Made by a program: the position numbers and the translations under genes | IMG/VR virus record: IMGVR_UViG_3300033145_003439 | Coordinates: 1-25,725 of that record | From: a virus | Strand: one strand, 5' to 3' | Length of the DNA: 25,725 nucleotides | The notes under the pieces: model-generated | Told to the model about the DNA's origin: nothing | The model's database searches: none | Seen by the model: only the letters and a program-made list of their open reading frames with translations | Shown here: positions 2,872-13,988 of the stretch, in pieces | Layout: the number at the start of each line of letters is the position of its first letter | Numbering within the stretch: the stretch's first letter is position 1

Positions 2872-3240
2872 ATGGCTGGAAACCCCAAGTTTGGAAAACG
2901 GATTCGTGAACTCCGTGAAGCGAAGAAGAAGGTTGACCCTTCCTATTCATTGAGGCAGTTCGCAGAGAAGGTCGGAGTCAGCGCCACGTTCTTGAGCAAA
3001 CTCGAGACGGGTGAGTTTGATCCACCCAGACCGGAAAAGATCATCAGGATGGCTGAACTTCTGGAAGTCGATCCTGATGAGTTTTTGGCACTGGCCGGCA
3101 AGACGGATCCTGAACTCGAGAACATAATTCTATCGAGGCCCAAGGCTATGGCTGATTTGTTGAGGACAGCTCACGACAAAGGTCTGACCGCTGACGATCT
3201 CGATAGGATCACTAGGAGGATCAAGAAAAAGAAACCCTGA
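2872..3240 (+). CDS. XRE-family transcriptional repressor (ImmR/CI-like)
   Basis: A 122-residue protein with a Cro/CI helix-turn-helix in residues about 6-72. SLRQFAEKVGVSATFLSKLETG is the two-helix motif, with the conserved Ser-x-x-Lys-Leu-Glu recognition pattern. A short helical C-terminal part follows and ends in a lysine-rich tail. CAGGAGGTG upstream of the ATG is a strong ribosome binding site. The protein has no LexA-like self-cleavage domain, and the next gene encodes an ImmA/IrrE metallopeptidase. That pairing is known from ICEBs1 and related elements, where ImmA cleaves the repressor ImmR. It is therefore the likely master repressor of lysogeny, autoregulated through the operator at 2783-2800. 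Confidence 0.88.
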   Translation: MAGNPKFGKRIRELREAKKKVDPSYSLRQFAEKVGVSATFLSKLETGEFDPPRPEKIIRMAELLEVDPDEFLALAGKTDPELENIILSRPKAMADLLRTAHDKGLTADDLDRITRRIKKKKP

Positions 3241-3248
3241 TCAGGGTT
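3233..3248. repeat. perfect 16-bp palindrome across the repressor stop codon
   Basis: AACCCTGATCAGGGTT reads the same on both strands and spans the TGA stop of the repressor gene, just before the ribosome binding site of the metallopeptidase gene. It could be a protein site, or an RNA hairpin tuning the ratio of the two proteins; neither can be decided here. Confidence 0.7.
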
Positions 3249-3261
3249 CGCGGAGGTGCCA

Positions 3262-3960
3262 ATGCATCCAAAAATCCGGTTTGTCCGGAAAGAGAGCATC
3301 GAGCTTGGGACTCAAGTTCTGCTGGCCGATTATGGCCGAAAATATGGGGAGATCTTCAAGCCTCCGATTCCGGTGGAAGAGATTCTCGAAGCCCACCTGG
3401 AAATCGACTTCTGGTTTGACGATCTCCCGGTCCTGTTGGAAATGCCTGACGTGCTGGGTGCTACCTGGTTCAAGCAGCGTGAGGTGAGAATCGATCAATC
3501 TCTCGATCCCTCGGTTCATCCGGCCCAATTGGGACGGTACCGCTTTACAGTCGCTCACGAAGTTGGGCACTGGGATCTCCACCGCGAAATCTTCCTGTCC
3601 GACAAGAGCCAGGTGACTTTGTTCGGAGTCAGGGAGGAGCCTATCGTTTGCCGGTCCAACGACCGCAGACCTTTGGAATGGCAAGCAGATTCCTTTGCTG
3701 GTTTTCTTCTGATGCCCAAGAAGATGGTCTTCGCCGCATGGGAGACTCTTCAGGGTTCCCTTCAACCCTATGTCGCCATCGGTGAAATCGACGACATCAA
3801 GGCCAAATGGGGTCTGGAGAACCATGAGTTCGCCACTGTGGACATCGCCCGCCAAATGGCTCAGGTGTTCGAGGTTTCGGCTCAGGCCATGCAGATCCGT
3901 TTGATTGAACTCGGACTCATTCGCACCCAGATTCCGGAGCCGAGTCTGTTTTCAGTGTAA
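3262..3960 (+). CDS. ImmA/IrrE family zinc metallopeptidase
   Basis: A 232-residue protein with the metallopeptidase signature. HEVGH at residues 99-103 supplies two zinc ligands (His99, His103) and the catalytic Glu100. The family's downstream helix with EWQADSFAGFLLMP starts at Glu139, the likely third ligand. An N-terminal region of about 90 residues and a C-terminal helical region surround the core. The start at ATG 3262 is preferred because GGAGG at 3252-3256 would overlap the alternative GTG at 3256. It directly follows the XRE repressor in the same operon. In related elements ImmA-type enzymes are anti-repressors that cleave the repressor after induction, and that is the inferred role here. 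Confidence 0.9.
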   Translation: MHPKIRFVRKESIELGTQVLLADYGRKYGEIFKPPIPVEEILEAHLEIDFWFDDLPVLLEMPDVLGATWFKQREVRIDQSLDPSVHPAQLGRYRFTVAHEVGHWDLHREIFLSDKSQVTLFGVREEPIVCRSNDRRPLEWQADSFAGFLLMPKKMVFAAWETLQGSLQPYVAIGEIDDIKAKWGLENHEFATVDIARQMAQVFEVSAQAMQIRLIELGLIRTQIPEPSLFSV

Positions 3961-9763: not shown

Positions 9764-11914
9764 ATGGGCATGGAAGGAACGATGGAAAAGATACTGTCTT
9801 CTGCTCTCGGGTACGCTGAACTCGGATATCCGGTTTTCCCCTGCGTACCCGGTGGAAAGAGACCGCTTACCAAACACGGGTTCAAGGACGCGACAACCGA
9901 TCCGGAGCAGATCCGCACCTGGTGGACTCAGAATCCCGATGCGAATGTGGCCATGCCCACAGCCGGTATGTTGGTGGTTGATATCGATGGGGCCGACAAT
10001 CCCTGGCCCAGTGACCAGGAGCAGGTGAACGATCTTGGCCAGTGCCCGGTTTCGCTGACCGCAGGGGGCGGACATCACCACATCTTTCGACAACCGGAAG
10101 GTGCCAGTTGGAAAAACACGGCCAGCAAGATTGCCTCCAAGGTCGACACCCGGGGTAACGGTGGGTACATCGTCTTGCCGCCGTCGATCGTTGATGGGAA
10201 GCCGTACCGATGGGCCACCGATTTCGAGGCCCGGCTGGCCGATCTGCCGGAGCCTCCTGGCTGGCTGGTTGAGTTGTTGGATGGAAATGGGGACCTGTTT
10301 GCCCAGGCGGTGGCATCATGTGGCGGAGGGAAAAAATGCGGCCAATCGTGCGCGCCTGTGGCGCCCCAGGGCGCGGCCTCTTCCCCTGATGGCAACCTTA
10401 TACCAGCCGGGCAAAGGAACGCCACCCTGGCGCGACTGGCGGGGGCAATGCGGCGTGTGGGGATGAGCCAAGCGGAGATTCTGGCCGCTCTGGCGAAGAT
10501 CAACCAGGATCGTTGCCGGCCGTCGTTGCCGGATAGGGAAGTGGGTCGGATAGCGGCCAGCATTGCGCGGTACGAACCGGACCAGGTAGCGGTGGCCGTA
10601 GTGGAAGACCACTGGGGCCAGGACATGGGTGCGCCAGAGCCCGCGGTAGATGCAGTGCCGGCTATTGTCGACCCTGGTCCTATGCCTAAAAAGTTGCTGC
10701 GGATCCCCGGCTTCATTTCCGAGGTCATGGATCATTGTATGGCCACGGCCCCGTACCCGAATCGTGTGCTGGCCTTTTCGGGTGCACTTGCATTGCAGGC
10801 GATACTGGCCGGGCGGAAGGTTAGGGATTCAGGTAGGAATCGGACGAACCTGTATTTGCTGGGACTTGCCCACTCATCCGCAGGGAAGGATCACCCCAGG
10901 AAGCTGAATATCGAAATCCTGCATTCGGCTGGGTTGTCGGACCAGATTGGTGGCCAGTTTGCATCCGGAGAGGGCATCCAGGACGCCTTGTTTACCCAGC
11001 CAACTATGCTATTTCAGACCGACGAGATTGACGGGATGCTGCAGTCAATTAACAAGTCCAAGGACGCCCGGCACGAGAACATAATGGGTACCCTGCTGAC
11101 GATGTTCTCCTCGGCGAATTCGATCTTTCCCATGCGGAGGAAAGCAGGGAAAGAATCGCCAGGCGTGATAGATCAGCCCTGTCTCGTCGTGTTCGGTACG
11201 GCTATTCCCGACCACTATTACAAGGCGCTCTCAGAGAGAATGCTCACCAACGGCTTCTTTGCTCGCATGATCGTTATGGAAGCCGGTAAGCGGTCTTCGG
11301 GACAGGAACCGAAGGATGATCCGCCGCCAGCACGGGTGTTGGAGACGGCCAAATGGTGGGCTGATTTCCAGCCAGGGACCGGGAACCTCGAGCAGTGGCA
11401 TCCAGTACCACGTTTGGTTAAGCATACGCCGGAAGCCCGTGAGATCTTAGTCGAGGCTCGCCTCCAGGTGGAGGCCGAGTATAACAAGGCCGAAACCAGG
11501 AGCGACGAGGTCGGCACGGCTGTGTGGGGACGGGTGGCAGAACATGCTCGCAAGCTTGCGTTGATCCATGCCGTCAGCGAGAACCATCTTGAGCCCGAGA
11601 TTGGCAGGGCGGCAGCTGAGTGGGCACGGGACTTTGCCATCCATCAGACCAGGCGGATGCTGTACATGGCCCAGTCTCATGTCGCGGATAACCCATTCCA
11701 TGCGGAATGCCTGAAGTTCCTGCGGAAGCTTCGCTCGACCCCCGGCGGGGAGTTATCACACAGCGTGTTGTTGAAGCGGATGAAGACTGATGCCAAGACC
11801 TTTCGTGAGCTGGTTAATACGCTCGAGCAACGCGGTGATATCACTACTCGGACAGAGGTTGTCCGTGGCGGAGTCGGGAAGTTCTACAGACTGCGTAAAA
11901 CTCAAGTTAGGTAG
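9764..11914 (+). CDS. bifunctional primase-polymerase with PriCT and DUF3987-like ATPase domains
   Basis: Up to 716 residues; ATG 9770 or ATG 9782 (close behind GGAAGG) may be the true start. The N-terminal PrimPol domain (about 1-175) has the catalytic Asp73-x-Asp75 in MLVVDIDG, the GGGHHH motif and DTRGNGGY with Asp128. A PriCT-type helical domain follows (about 217-272). The C-terminal part resembles DUF3987, with AHSSAGKDHPRK (369-380) as an atypical P-loop and Asp420-Glu421 in LFQTDEID as Walker B. It probably primes and may initiate phage replication; the linker between domains is Cys- and Ala-rich. It is the last gene of the replication operon before AT-rich cargo. Confidence 0.9.
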   Translation: MGMEGTMEKILSSALGYAELGYPVFPCVPGGKRPLTKHGFKDATTDPEQIRTWWTQNPDANVAMPTAGMLVVDIDGADNPWPSDQEQVNDLGQCPVSLTAGGGHHHIFRQPEGASWKNTASKIASKVDTRGNGGYIVLPPSIVDGKPYRWATDFEARLADLPEPPGWLVELLDGNGDLFAQAVASCGGGKKCGQSCAPVAPQGAASSPDGNLIPAGQRNATLARLAGAMRRVGMSQAEILAALAKINQDRCRPSLPDREVGRIAASIARYEPDQVAVAVVEDHWGQDMGAPEPAVDAVPAIVDPGPMPKKLLRIPGFISEVMDHCMATAPYPNRVLAFSGALALQAILAGRKVRDSGRNRTNLYLLGLAHSSAGKDHPRKLNIEILHSAGLSDQIGGQFASGEGIQDALFTQPTMLFQTDEIDGMLQSINKSKDARHENIMGTLLTMFSSANSIFPMRRKAGKESPGVIDQPCLVVFGTAIPDHYYKALSERMLTNGFFARMIVMEAGKRSSGQEPKDDPPPARVLETAKWWADFQPGTGNLEQWHPVPRLVKHTPEAREILVEARLQVEAEYNKAETRSDEVGTAVWGRVAEHARKLALIHAVSENHLEPEIGRAAAEWARDFAIHQTRRMLYMAQSHVADNPFHAECLKFLRKLRSTPGGELSHSVLLKRMKTDAKTFRELVNTLEQRGDITTRTEVVRGGVGKFYRLRKTQVR

Positions 11915-12105: not shown

Positions 12106-12594
12106 ATGCAAATATCACCTCAGCTTGAGTTTGAACCGCTGTTGCCGATTGGATTTCACGGAATGGATTTGCCGGCAATCCGTGAATTGTGTGTCGGGAG
12201 TTTCCCCTCCTCCGCAACTCGATCGGAAGTGATGGCTGGACTGGAAAATGTAATCGTCCAGCTCGAGAAGGAAGGTATTGAAGCGGAGGTATGGGTAGAT
12301 GGGAGTTTTCTGACCAAGAAACCAAACCCGAACGATTCAGACATCATCGTTTTTGTTGAATCGGAGGTATATATGAACGCGACCCCCGAACAACGAAAGA
12401 CATTAGATTGGATCAAGGCTAACCAGAAGGCTAGTTTGAGGTGCGATTGCTATCTATACGTGAAGATGGCTGCTGATAGTAACCAAGCGCCATTGAATGA
12501 GTATATGCATTCCTATTGGCACCGTCAGTTCGGGTTCAGTAGGGGAAATAACCTGAAAGGCATTGCGGTTATCAATACAGGGAGGCAAACATGA
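12106..12594 (+). CDS. DUF6932-like stand-alone nucleotidyltransferase (cargo cassette, gene 1)
   Basis: 162 residues with a pol-beta-type nucleotidyltransferase core: Gly66-Ser67 in VWVDGSFLT, Asp77 and Asp79 in NPNDSDIIVFVE, and Asp115 in LRCDCYLYV as the probable third carboxylate. This is the arrangement of minimal nucleotidyltransferases such as MNT toxins and antitoxins, and the sequence resembles DUF6932. No HEPN partner is adjacent. The gene is visibly AT-richer than the replication genes and follows a 191-base spacer. It shares an ATGA overlap with the next gene, so the two form one cassette. It may modify a nucleotide, tRNA or partner protein; the substrate is unknown. Confidence 0.78.
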   Translation: MQISPQLEFEPLLPIGFHGMDLPAIRELCVGSFPSSATRSEVMAGLENVIVQLEKEGIEAEVWVDGSFLTKKPNPNDSDIIVFVESEVYMNATPEQRKTLDWIKANQKASLRCDCYLYVKMAADSNQAPLNEYMHSYWHRQFGFSRGNNLKGIAVINTGRQT

Positions 12595-13526
12595 GCACCT
12601 TGATTGATGTTACCCAGCAATTAAACGAGACCCAGGCGATGATTCGGACCCTGGAAGCAGCCTTGCGTGAAGATCCCCAAAACGAAGCGCTGCAGGTGAA
12701 TCTGGAGTCTCTCTATGTCCGAGTCGTGCATCTTGAAGAGAAATTCCTAACTGCGGCAAATCAGACAAACTTGGACATTTGTTCGTATCGGATCTACTCC
12801 GAGCATGAAACCAAACTTCCTGTTGGTGCGTTGGGTGCTGCGTTGAGCCATTTTCAGAAGTGGTTTTCTATTGTTTATGACTCCGTTGTCAACGGCCCTA
12901 AAACGAGGGCGCGAATTGGTCCAGAAATTGTTTCTAAGACAACGATGGATTTTGGGTTCACTTTTCAGGGGTCGGTCGGTGTTGCACTGACAGTACCACG
13001 TGACCGGGTCCTGTTTGATACTCATTTGGAAAAGGCGATGCAACTTACCACCGAATTGATAAGCGCTGAGGACAGCGAGCAGGTCCATCACTATTCTGAA
13101 GTAGTTGGGGCTGCTGCGATCAAAGCTCTCTACGCACTCGTCCAAGATCACATAGAATCGGGGACTGGAGTCGAGATCAGATGGTTGCGAGAGGACTCGG
13201 AACTTGCTTCGGCCTGCGTTGACGGCAACCATATGAAGAATCTTGGACAAGCTATCGACGAAACGAGCGATCAGAGCGAAGAGGAGATAACGATTGAGGG
13301 AATACTGGTTGGCGCGGATACTACAAACCACACTTTTCATATGGCATTCGACGATCCAGATGTGCAGGAAATAAGAGGGAAAATGTCTGAAAATATTGGG
13401 AGCGGATACACGGTAGAATTACCCAAACGATATATTGCAAATGTGACCAAGTCCTCATTCACGAACTTCGCAACTGACAAAGAAACAGAGAAGTTTTTTT
13501 TGAACAGCCTCGCTGAGCCTAATTAG
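12591..13526 (+). CDS. unknown 311-residue partner of the nucleotidyltransferase (cargo cassette, gene 2)
   Basis: I do not recognise this family. Residues about 5-55 look like a charged coiled coil with regular leucines (TQAMIRTLEAALRED onward). Residues about 60-200 are mixed alpha/beta, with FGFTFQGSVGVALTVPRDR in the centre. Residues about 235-300 read as a small beta-barrel, with ITIEGILVGADTTNHTFHMAF and YTVELPKRYIANV. No membrane segment, signal peptide or classical catalytic motif is seen. It starts in an ATGA overlap with the nucleotidyltransferase gene, so it is probably a partner or target regulator. Its stop codon is formed with the first base of the adjacent MITE-like element, so the original C-terminus may have been altered. 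Confidence 0.75.
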   Translation: MSTLIDVTQQLNETQAMIRTLEAALREDPQNEALQVNLESLYVRVVHLEEKFLTAANQTNLDICSYRIYSEHETKLPVGALGAALSHFQKWFSIVYDSVVNGPKTRARIGPEIVSKTTMDFGFTFQGSVGVALTVPRDRVLFDTHLEKAMQLTTELISAEDSEQVHHYSEVVGAAAIKALYALVQDHIESGTGVEIRWLREDSELASACVDGNHMKNLGQAIDETSDQSEEEITIEGILVGADTTNHTFHMAFDDPDVQEIRGKMSENIGSGYTVELPKRYIANVTKSSFTNFATDKETEKFFLNSLAEPN

Positions 13527-13646
13527 AACTCATTTCAAAACCCAGATTGTGGCTTTGTGGCTCATGGAGAAAGGCCACGAAACACGGATTTCGGGCACGA
13601 TATTGCTTATCTCTGCTCCAGCCAAAAGGTTTTGAAATAAGTTCTA
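13524..13646. mobile_element. MITE-like element with terminal inverted repeats and TA flanks
   Basis: GAACTCATTTCAAAACC (13526-13542) and GGTTTTGAAATAAGTTC (13628-13644) are inverted repeats matching at 16 of 17 positions. TA dinucleotides flank both ends, at 13524-13525 and 13645-13646. The 119-bp interior has no transposase frame. This is the structure of a non-autonomous MITE mobilised by a transposase that duplicates TA; the family (IS630-like or IS5-like) is not determinable here. Confidence 0.6.
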
Positions 13647-13692: not shown

Positions 13693-13988
13693 TTCACAGT
13701 GAAAGCCATCCAGGGGTGAAACCGTTTGGCGAGGGGAAACGTTAGCCCGATAAAACCTCGTAACTTCAAACCCCACATTTTGTTCCATGCAATTTCACCA
13801 TTTCACCCCCCCTTCATCCACAAAAAAGCGGGGGGTGAAACCGTGTGAAAGAGTAGATTGTTAACTATATATATTACAATATATTATCTCTTCTATTCTC
13901 CTGTTCCCCCTTTCACCTGCTCGCACGATATTTCTTTCATTCCCCCAGTTTCTGGGTGTGTATGAGGGAGGGTGGTGAAAAGGTGAAA
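13693..13988. other. candidate replication origin with GGTGAAA iterons and AT-rich core
   Basis: Seven exact GGTGAAA heptamers occur in 274 bases: + strand at 13715, 13834, 13974 and 13982; - strand at 13793, 13801 and 13911 (as TTTCACC). Two of the sets are tandem pairs with 8-base spacing in opposite orientation, and TTCACAGTGAA at 13693 adds a symmetric variant. Between the inner repeats lies an AT-rich tract (about 13855-13900). Iterons beside an AT-rich unwinding region just after a replication operon are typical of an origin. The rest of the 570-base gap holds the MITE and a terminator, with no convincing gene. Confidence 0.55.
13801..13840. repeat. perfect inverted repeat inside the candidate origin
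   Basis: TTTCACCCCCC (13801-13811) is the exact complement of GGGGGGTGAAA (13830-13840), with an 18-base spacer. The arms contain one iteron each in opposite orientation. It could form a strong hairpin in single-stranded DNA or RNA, or bind a dimeric initiator. Confidence 0.75.

What the first reader, a model, noticed from the sequence alone, without database searches (positions are those of the whole stretch)
12106..13526. Two-gene cargo cassette: nucleotidyltransferase plus unknown 311-residue partner
A minimal nucleotidyltransferase with all catalytic residues is coupled by ATGA to a coiled-coil and beta-barrel protein of no known family. The cassette is AT-richer than the replication genes, sits at the replication-origin boundary and ends at a MITE. 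This is the form of a defence or toxin-antitoxin system, but the partner is not HEPN, so it would be a new pairing.
Basis: partly seen in the sequence, partly recalled or inferred. Interest (0 to 1): 0.7.

Follow-up and report, generated by a model that had tools for sequence, protein, structure and literature searches.

The report
Prophage nucleotidyltransferase pair, PDC-M63 type
Two overlapping phage genes encode a small nucleotide-transferring enzyme and a partner protein; the pair is already listed as a candidate anti-phage system (PDC-M63) without demonstrated activity, and comparison across bacteria suggests it works like a toxin-antitoxin switch whose partner has an interchangeable tail.

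Summary
In detail: a 162-aa minimal nucleotidyltransferase (A, 12106-12594) overlaps by ATGA a 311-aa partner (B, 12591-13526), at 47% GC against 58% for the record. The novelty claim does not hold. PADLOC already lists the pair as candidate defence system PDC-M63: A matches PDC-M63A (6e-32) and B matches PDC-M63B (1e-13). A is also Pfam DUF6932. The pairing is ancient: 116 of 131 DUF6932 loci have B next door by a simple profile, 34 of 34 lambdoid-type B loci have A, and A and B distances correlate at r = 0.84. In lambdoid phages the pair sits just downstream of cI, as rexAB does. A published deletion in E. coli NILS69 changed none of ten phages. What appears new here is that B is modular. 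Other DUF6932 enzymes are followed by an N-terminal helical hairpin alone, or hairpin plus HTH, HTH-IrrE peptidase, TPR, or the M63B domain (alpha/beta plus OB-like barrel). The best reading is an A effector restrained by a hairpin antitoxin with a swappable trigger or regulatory domain (confidence about 0.5). Which gene is toxic was not shown. In 64 relatives of this phage the slot holds other cargo, including restriction-type nucleases.

The parts
12106..12594 (+). Gene A: minimal nucleotidyltransferase, DUF6932 / PDC-M63A, 162 aa
   Evidence: Pfam PF22014 2e-26; PADLOC PDC-M63A 6e-32
12301..12447 (+). NTase active site in gene A: G66-S67 (12301-12306), D77 and D79 (12334-12342), third acidic residue D114 (12445-12447)
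   Evidence: alignment; G66, S67, D77, D79 invariant in 71/71 relatives, D114 Asp in 59/71
12591..12594 (+). ATGA overlap of A stop and B start; the same 4-bp overlap is in 58 of 92 distinct pairs
12591..13526 (+). Gene B: PDC-M63B, 311 aa
   Evidence: PADLOC PDC-M63B 1e-13; no Pfam family
12594..12764 (+). B N-terminal helical hairpin (residues 2-58), the module shared with other DUF6932 partners
   Evidence: AF2; profile comparisons
12771..13262 (+). B alpha/beta domain (residues 61-224), no solved relative found
   Evidence: AF2; Foldseek PDB
13266..13514 (+). B C-terminal OB-fold-like barrel (residues 226-308)
   Evidence: AF2; Foldseek hits to SSB, RPA, CST, ExoVII and IF1, SSB for a relative, E 0.005-0.3
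9764..11914 (+). Upstream Prim-Pol/PriCT replication gene that bounds the cargo slot
   Evidence: Pfam; slot comparison
13524..13646 (.). MITE-like element, 19-bp terminal inverted repeats, starts at B's stop codon

Best explanation
This is a phage-borne PDC-M63 pair that most likely works as a toxin-antitoxin-type anti-phage (superinfection) module. A is the nucleotidyltransferase effector. B is its co-translated partner: the N-terminal helical hairpin holds A inactive, and the C-terminal alpha/beta plus OB-like part is the trigger-sensing or regulatory domain. When a competing phage changes what B senses, possibly a nucleic-acid structure given the OB-like barrel, A is freed and transfers nucleotides to an essential target. 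By analogy with MenT and toxSAS enzymes the target could be a tRNA end, and the infected cell stops supporting phage growth. Shown: the pair's identity, conservation, coupling, co-inheritance, modular partner architecture and prophage position. Inferred: which gene is toxic, hairpin-A binding, the target, the trigger, and defence itself.
For: Both proteins match PADLOC PDC-M63 models in the right order. B lies directly downstream in 116/131 DUF6932 loci by a 5-sequence profile; several of the rest carry a diverged full-length B or a short partner. Lambdoid-type B always has A, 34/34. A-B distance correlation is r = 0.84, 0 of 2000 permutations as high, n = 71. Phylum draws by the DUF6932 profile alone show the second gene in several forms, each starting with a hairpin: hairpin only (11 loci), hairpin+XRE HTH (6), hairpin+HTH+IrrE peptidase (4), hairpin+TPR (2), M63B (Pfam). 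Hairpin profiles of M63B match those of the other classes at E 2e-12 to 5e-4; reversed controls reach only 0.0085. TPR and one other form nest inside the M63B branch of the A tree. HTH and HTH-peptidase proteins downstream of a small enzyme are the typical antitoxin arrangement (PMC2701414; PD-lambda-2, PMC9519451; L165's partner hits PD-Lambda-2_B at 1e-75). 30 of 58 viral pairs have a CI-like gene just upstream, the rexAB position. In E. coli NZ_CP020107 an IS3 interrupts A while B is intact.
Against: Deleting PDC-M63AB in E. coli NILS69 changed none of 10 phages (PMC12409345). In PD-lambda-2 the Xre-peptidase protein, not the HigB-like one, was toxic alone, so polarity cannot be read off domain labels. 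A fused A+B model gave pTM 0.56, so no confident interface. Covariation did not favour the hairpin as A's contact, though only about 61 effective sequences were available. The B-hairpin to HTH-hairpin match is modest (32% probability, E 5e-4), and some class pairs (e.g. HTH against TPR) do not match each other directly. Neighbours of cellular copies are mostly phage, regulator or housekeeping genes, with few defence genes.
Confidence: 0.5

Rival explanations
1. Reverse polarity, as in MNT-HEPN (type VII): A is the antitoxin and neutralises a toxic B by attaching nucleotides to it.
For: A is a minimal NTase like MntA; the MntA-HEPN complex 7ae9 appears among weak fold hits. In PD-lambda-2 the second, regulator-like protein was the toxic one.
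Against: B has no HEPN or other recognisable catalytic domain. Several DUF6932 enzymes have a partner of only 55-78 aa that is little more than the hairpin, and others carry HTH repressor domains typical of antitoxins.
Confidence: 0.2
2. A lysogeny or phage-regulation pair rather than defence: A modifies a regulator or RNA and B is its nucleic-acid-binding cofactor.
For: Frequent position directly after cI; OB-like barrel in B; negative deletion test for defence.
Against: The pair also occurs in unrelated cellular and phage contexts across many phyla with no shared regulatory neighbour. In this phage it sits after the replication genes, and 64 relatives with the same Prim-Pol lack it there.
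Confidence: 0.17
3. A makes a nucleotide second messenger that B senses (CBASS-like signalling).
For: The only sequence hit of A among solved structures is a cGAS/DncV-like enzyme, at E 0.56, not significant.
Against: A is about 160 aa, half a CD-NTase, and no PADLOC CBASS model matched. Hairpin-only partners leave nothing to sense a messenger or act.
Confidence: 0.06

Closest known systems
PADLOC PDC-M63 (candidate defence system, A+B)
   Same: Both proteins match the A and B models; same order and adjacency; also prophage-borne in E. coli NILS69
   Different: This copy is far from the lambdoid ones (A 36-40%, B 17-18% identity) and sits after Prim-Pol, not after cI
MNT-HEPN (MntA-HepT) type VII toxin-antitoxin
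   Same: Minimal NTase with a co-operonic partner
   Different: Partner is not HEPN; NTase family is DUF6932; partner varies and can be a bare hairpin
MenAT / AbiE NTase toxin-antitoxin systems
   Same: NTase next to a regulator-like partner; working analogy for A as a tRNA-modifying toxin
   Different: A hits DUF6932, not the AbiEii/DUF1814 family; gene order is enzyme first; no AbiEi/MenA-type domain found in the partner
PD-lambda-2 and Xre-COG2856 toxin-antitoxin operons
   Same: Sister DUF6932 loci have an Xre+IrrE second gene; L165's matches PD-Lambda-2_B at 1e-75
   Different: PD-lambda-2 has a HigB-like first gene and a third gene; the window's B has neither HTH nor peptidase
Lambda rexAB (position only)
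   Same: In lambdoid phages the pair lies directly downstream of cI
   Different: No sequence relation tested or seen; the window's own copy is not in that position

Membership tests
PDC-M63 | Gene A matches the PDC-M63A profile | tested here: met
   6e-32, full length
PDC-M63 | Gene B matches the PDC-M63B profile and is adjacent | tested here: met
   1.1e-13, residues 1-304 of 311; ATGA overlap
PDC-M63 | Anti-phage activity | not testable with these tools
   Published deletion of an E. coli copy was negative for 10 phages (PMC12409345)
DUF6932 (PF22014) | Profile above curated cut-off, NTase active-site residues present | tested here: met
   93.6 bits against cut-off 27; residues
MNT-HEPN type VII TA | HEPN partner | tested here: not met
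   No HEPN in Pfam or PADLOC; fold is hairpin + alpha/beta + OB-like
MenAT / AbiE | NTase of the AbiEii/DUF1814 family | tested here: not met
   Pfam and NCBIfam give no such hit
PD-lambda-2 | HigB-like A, Xre-peptidase B, third gene C | tested here: not met
   A is DUF6932, B has no HTH or peptidase, no third gene before the MITE
CBASS | CD-NTase with messenger-sensing effector | tested here: not met
   No CBASS model in PADLOC; PDB hit only E 0.56
Type II-like toxin-antitoxin | One gene toxic alone, the other neutralises it | not testable with these tools
   Inferred from architecture only

The most novel reading that the evidence does not exclude
DUF6932 defines a new class of nucleotidyltransferase toxin whose antitoxins share one small helical hairpin and carry exchangeable C-terminal sensors (none, HTH, HTH-protease, TPR, M63B). 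That would make PDC-M63 one branch of a wider modular immune family, carried by some lambdoid phages in the rexAB position.
Probability: 0.4. Interest if true: 0.7.

Novelty: new member of a known kind. Interest (0 to 1): 0.45.

Why it matters
If the modular reading is right, a candidate system listed without a mechanism becomes a testable toxin-antitoxin family present in a few percent of sampled species in several phyla (over-cutoff hits, each draw including one genome chosen because it has the family: Bacteroidota 12/198, Pseudomonadota 15/349, Bacillota 6/299, Verrucomicrobiota 3/241, Acidobacteriota 9/247; phylum names from the record titles of the centre genomes). It points to the hairpin as the part to delete and to the NTase active site as the residues to mutate. 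The cI-adjacent position suggests testing exclusion of temperate, related phages rather than the virulent panel that gave the published negative.

Tried and rejected
Single-protein scan of viral contigs for A found nothing; an alignment query worked. B against phages and plasmids by tblastn: none. PDB sequence searches: nothing significant. Fused read-through model of L093 to see the A-B interface: pTM 0.56, uninformative. Covariation between A and the parts of B: no enrichment of the hairpin. DUF6575 link: B's best viral fold match is a phage protein named DUF6575 (E 9e-13), a domain seen in a validated defence screen, but DUF6575 was too rare in sampled genomes to align, and it was not established that DUF6575 is the shared part. 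Rfam and tRNA: nothing. First parse of minus-strand loci was wrong and was redone.

Full report
Observation. A is 162 aa and matches Pfam DUF6932 (PF22014, 2e-26); B is 311 aa and has no Pfam family. The ATGA overlap is real. GC is 46.8% and 47.5% against 58% for the record. The window is a complete IMG/VR virus record of 25,725 bases with a serine recombinase, XRE and IrrE-type genes, DUF3799, AAA, RusA, helicase and Prim-Pol genes on the + strand, and terminase, ParB-methyltransferase and tail genes on the - strand. It therefore comes from a probably temperate tailed phage.

Identity. PADLOC lists both proteins: PDC-M63A (6e-32) and PDC-M63B (1e-13 over residues 1-304). PDC systems are computational candidates; PMC12988326 describes them as coming from a 'guilt-by-embedding' search with most still unvalidated. 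One paper tested this one: PDC-M63AB in a prophage of E. coli NILS69 was deleted, and the infectivity of ten phages did not change (PMC12409345). The claim of a new pairing is therefore not supported.

Conservation of the pair. An alignment query for A found 63 viral and 60 genome loci. With the phage and plasmid loci and the window, 116 of 131 have B directly downstream by a profile built from five B sequences. Of the others, three (L054, L058, L068) carry a diverged full-length B by eye. Lambdoid-type B searched for on its own has A in 34 of 34 cases; these are contigs already found through A. Among 92 distinct pairs, 58 overlap by exactly four bases. A and B distances correlate at r = 0.84 over 71 pairs, with no permutation of 2000 reaching more than 0.14. 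A is more conserved (mean identity 33%) than B (22%). In A, G66, S67, D77 and D79 are invariant; the third acidic residue D114 is Asp in 59 of 71.

Position. In mEpX1, PhiR30_1, Erwinia phage 59 and a Klebsiella prophage the pair follows cI directly. In all, 30 of 58 viral pairs have a CI-like gene just upstream on the same strand. Lambda's rexAB occupies that position (background knowledge). The window's copy is different: it follows Prim-Pol. Of 64 related phages with the same Prim-Pol and enough downstream sequence, none has A or B there and the slot content varies. Examples include an Mrr restriction endonuclease (L259), a DUF4365 gene (L257) and a NO VEIN C-terminal domain gene (L308). 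'Cargo' is thus a fair description.

Modular partner. Searching DUF6932 across five phyla and eleven chosen genomes by profile, without reference to B, gave 57 readable loci. The second gene is M63B-like in 28, hairpin-only in 11, hairpin plus XRE HTH in 6, hairpin plus HTH plus IrrE-type peptidase in 4, hairpin plus TPR in 2, and hairpin plus an unassigned domain in 1. The remaining 5 are truncated, unclear or without a partner. The classes were assigned by reading the sequences with profile support. HTH_3 and Peptidase_M78 were confirmed by Pfam for representatives, and TPR for both TPR-type partners. L170's peptidase match is below cut-off and L164 is assigned by similarity to L160. Profile comparison of the hairpins gives E 2e-12 (M63B against TPR class, which here includes the unassigned one), 1e-5 (M63B against its second subfamily), 7e-5 (HTH against hairpin-only), 3e-4 (M63B against hairpin-only) and 5e-4 (M63B against HTH). 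Four other class pairs do not match directly. Reversed controls reach at best 0.0085. The second M63B subfamily also matches M63B outside the hairpin (E 2e-21). On a tree of A, partner classes cluster (11 changes against 40 for shuffled labels). TPR and the unassigned form nest within M63B, and hairpin-only appears in about three places, which is what exchange or loss of the C-terminal part would produce. Many branches are weakly supported.

Structure. The AF2 model of the window's B has pLDDT 92 and pTM 0.78: hairpin 2-58, alpha/beta 61-224, barrel 226-308. Foldseek against PDB gives nothing below 1e-3, but the best consistent hits are OB-folds (SSB, RPA, CST, ExoVII) for the barrel, and IF1/SSB for a relative. 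A predicted phage protein named DUF6575 matches over 287 columns at 9e-13. A read-through model of A+B from L093 has good local confidence but pTM 0.56, so it does not show an interface.

Mechanism. HTH or HTH-peptidase proteins following a small toxin-like enzyme are the known toxin-antitoxin arrangement (PMC2701414). The Xre-peptidase partner of one DUF6932 enzyme matches PD-Lambda-2_B at 1e-75, and PD-lambda-2 is a validated abortive-infection system (PMC9519451). That DUF6932 stands where a toxin stands, with a partner that can shrink to a hairpin, is the main argument for A as effector and B as restrainer. The same paper warns against certainty, since in PD-lambda-2 the Xre-peptidase protein was toxic and the HigB-like one rescued. 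In E. coli, 97 of 5,426 genomes carry the lambdoid pair, almost all intact. One inspected exception has an IS3 interrupting A with B intact, which fits A as the harmful member but is a single case. A tRNA target for A is by analogy with MenT only.

Verdict. A real, conserved, mobile two-gene module, already catalogued as a candidate. The pairing is not new. The interchangeable hairpin partner and the cI-adjacent position are the useful additions; function remains inferred.

Noticed in passing
window 13715-13988: Seven GGTGAAA copies on both strands in 274 bp next to an AT-rich run, with GC-skew change: looks like an iteron-type replication origin.
   Followed up: partly
window 13524-13646: MITE-like element with 19-bp terminal repeats beginning at B's stop codon; the repeat sequence occurs in 12 other viral contigs.
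   Followed up: partly
L257, L259, L308 downstream of Prim-Pol: The same slot in related phages holds DUF4365, Mrr and NO VEIN C-terminal domain genes: a possible phage defence hotspot.
   Followed up: partly
L254, about 860-3424 bases downstream of the Prim-Pol stop: Slot cargo in one relative is an ATP-grasp enzyme facing a gene that reads like a PLP-type decarboxylase, odd metabolic cargo for a phage.
   Followed up: no
L178 1492-2694: A DUF6932 NTase continues as one 400-aa protein into a region with an alpha/beta-hydrolase-like SHSFG motif by eye; only DUF6932 found by Pfam.
   Followed up: no
A alignment position 114: Eleven of 71 relatives have His instead of the third catalytic Asp; L193, in the window's wider subfamily, reads HLCHS there.
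   Followed up: no
window 2872-3960: XRE HTH gene followed by an IrrE-type peptidase gene, an ImmR-ImmA-like lysogeny switch pair.
   Followed up: no
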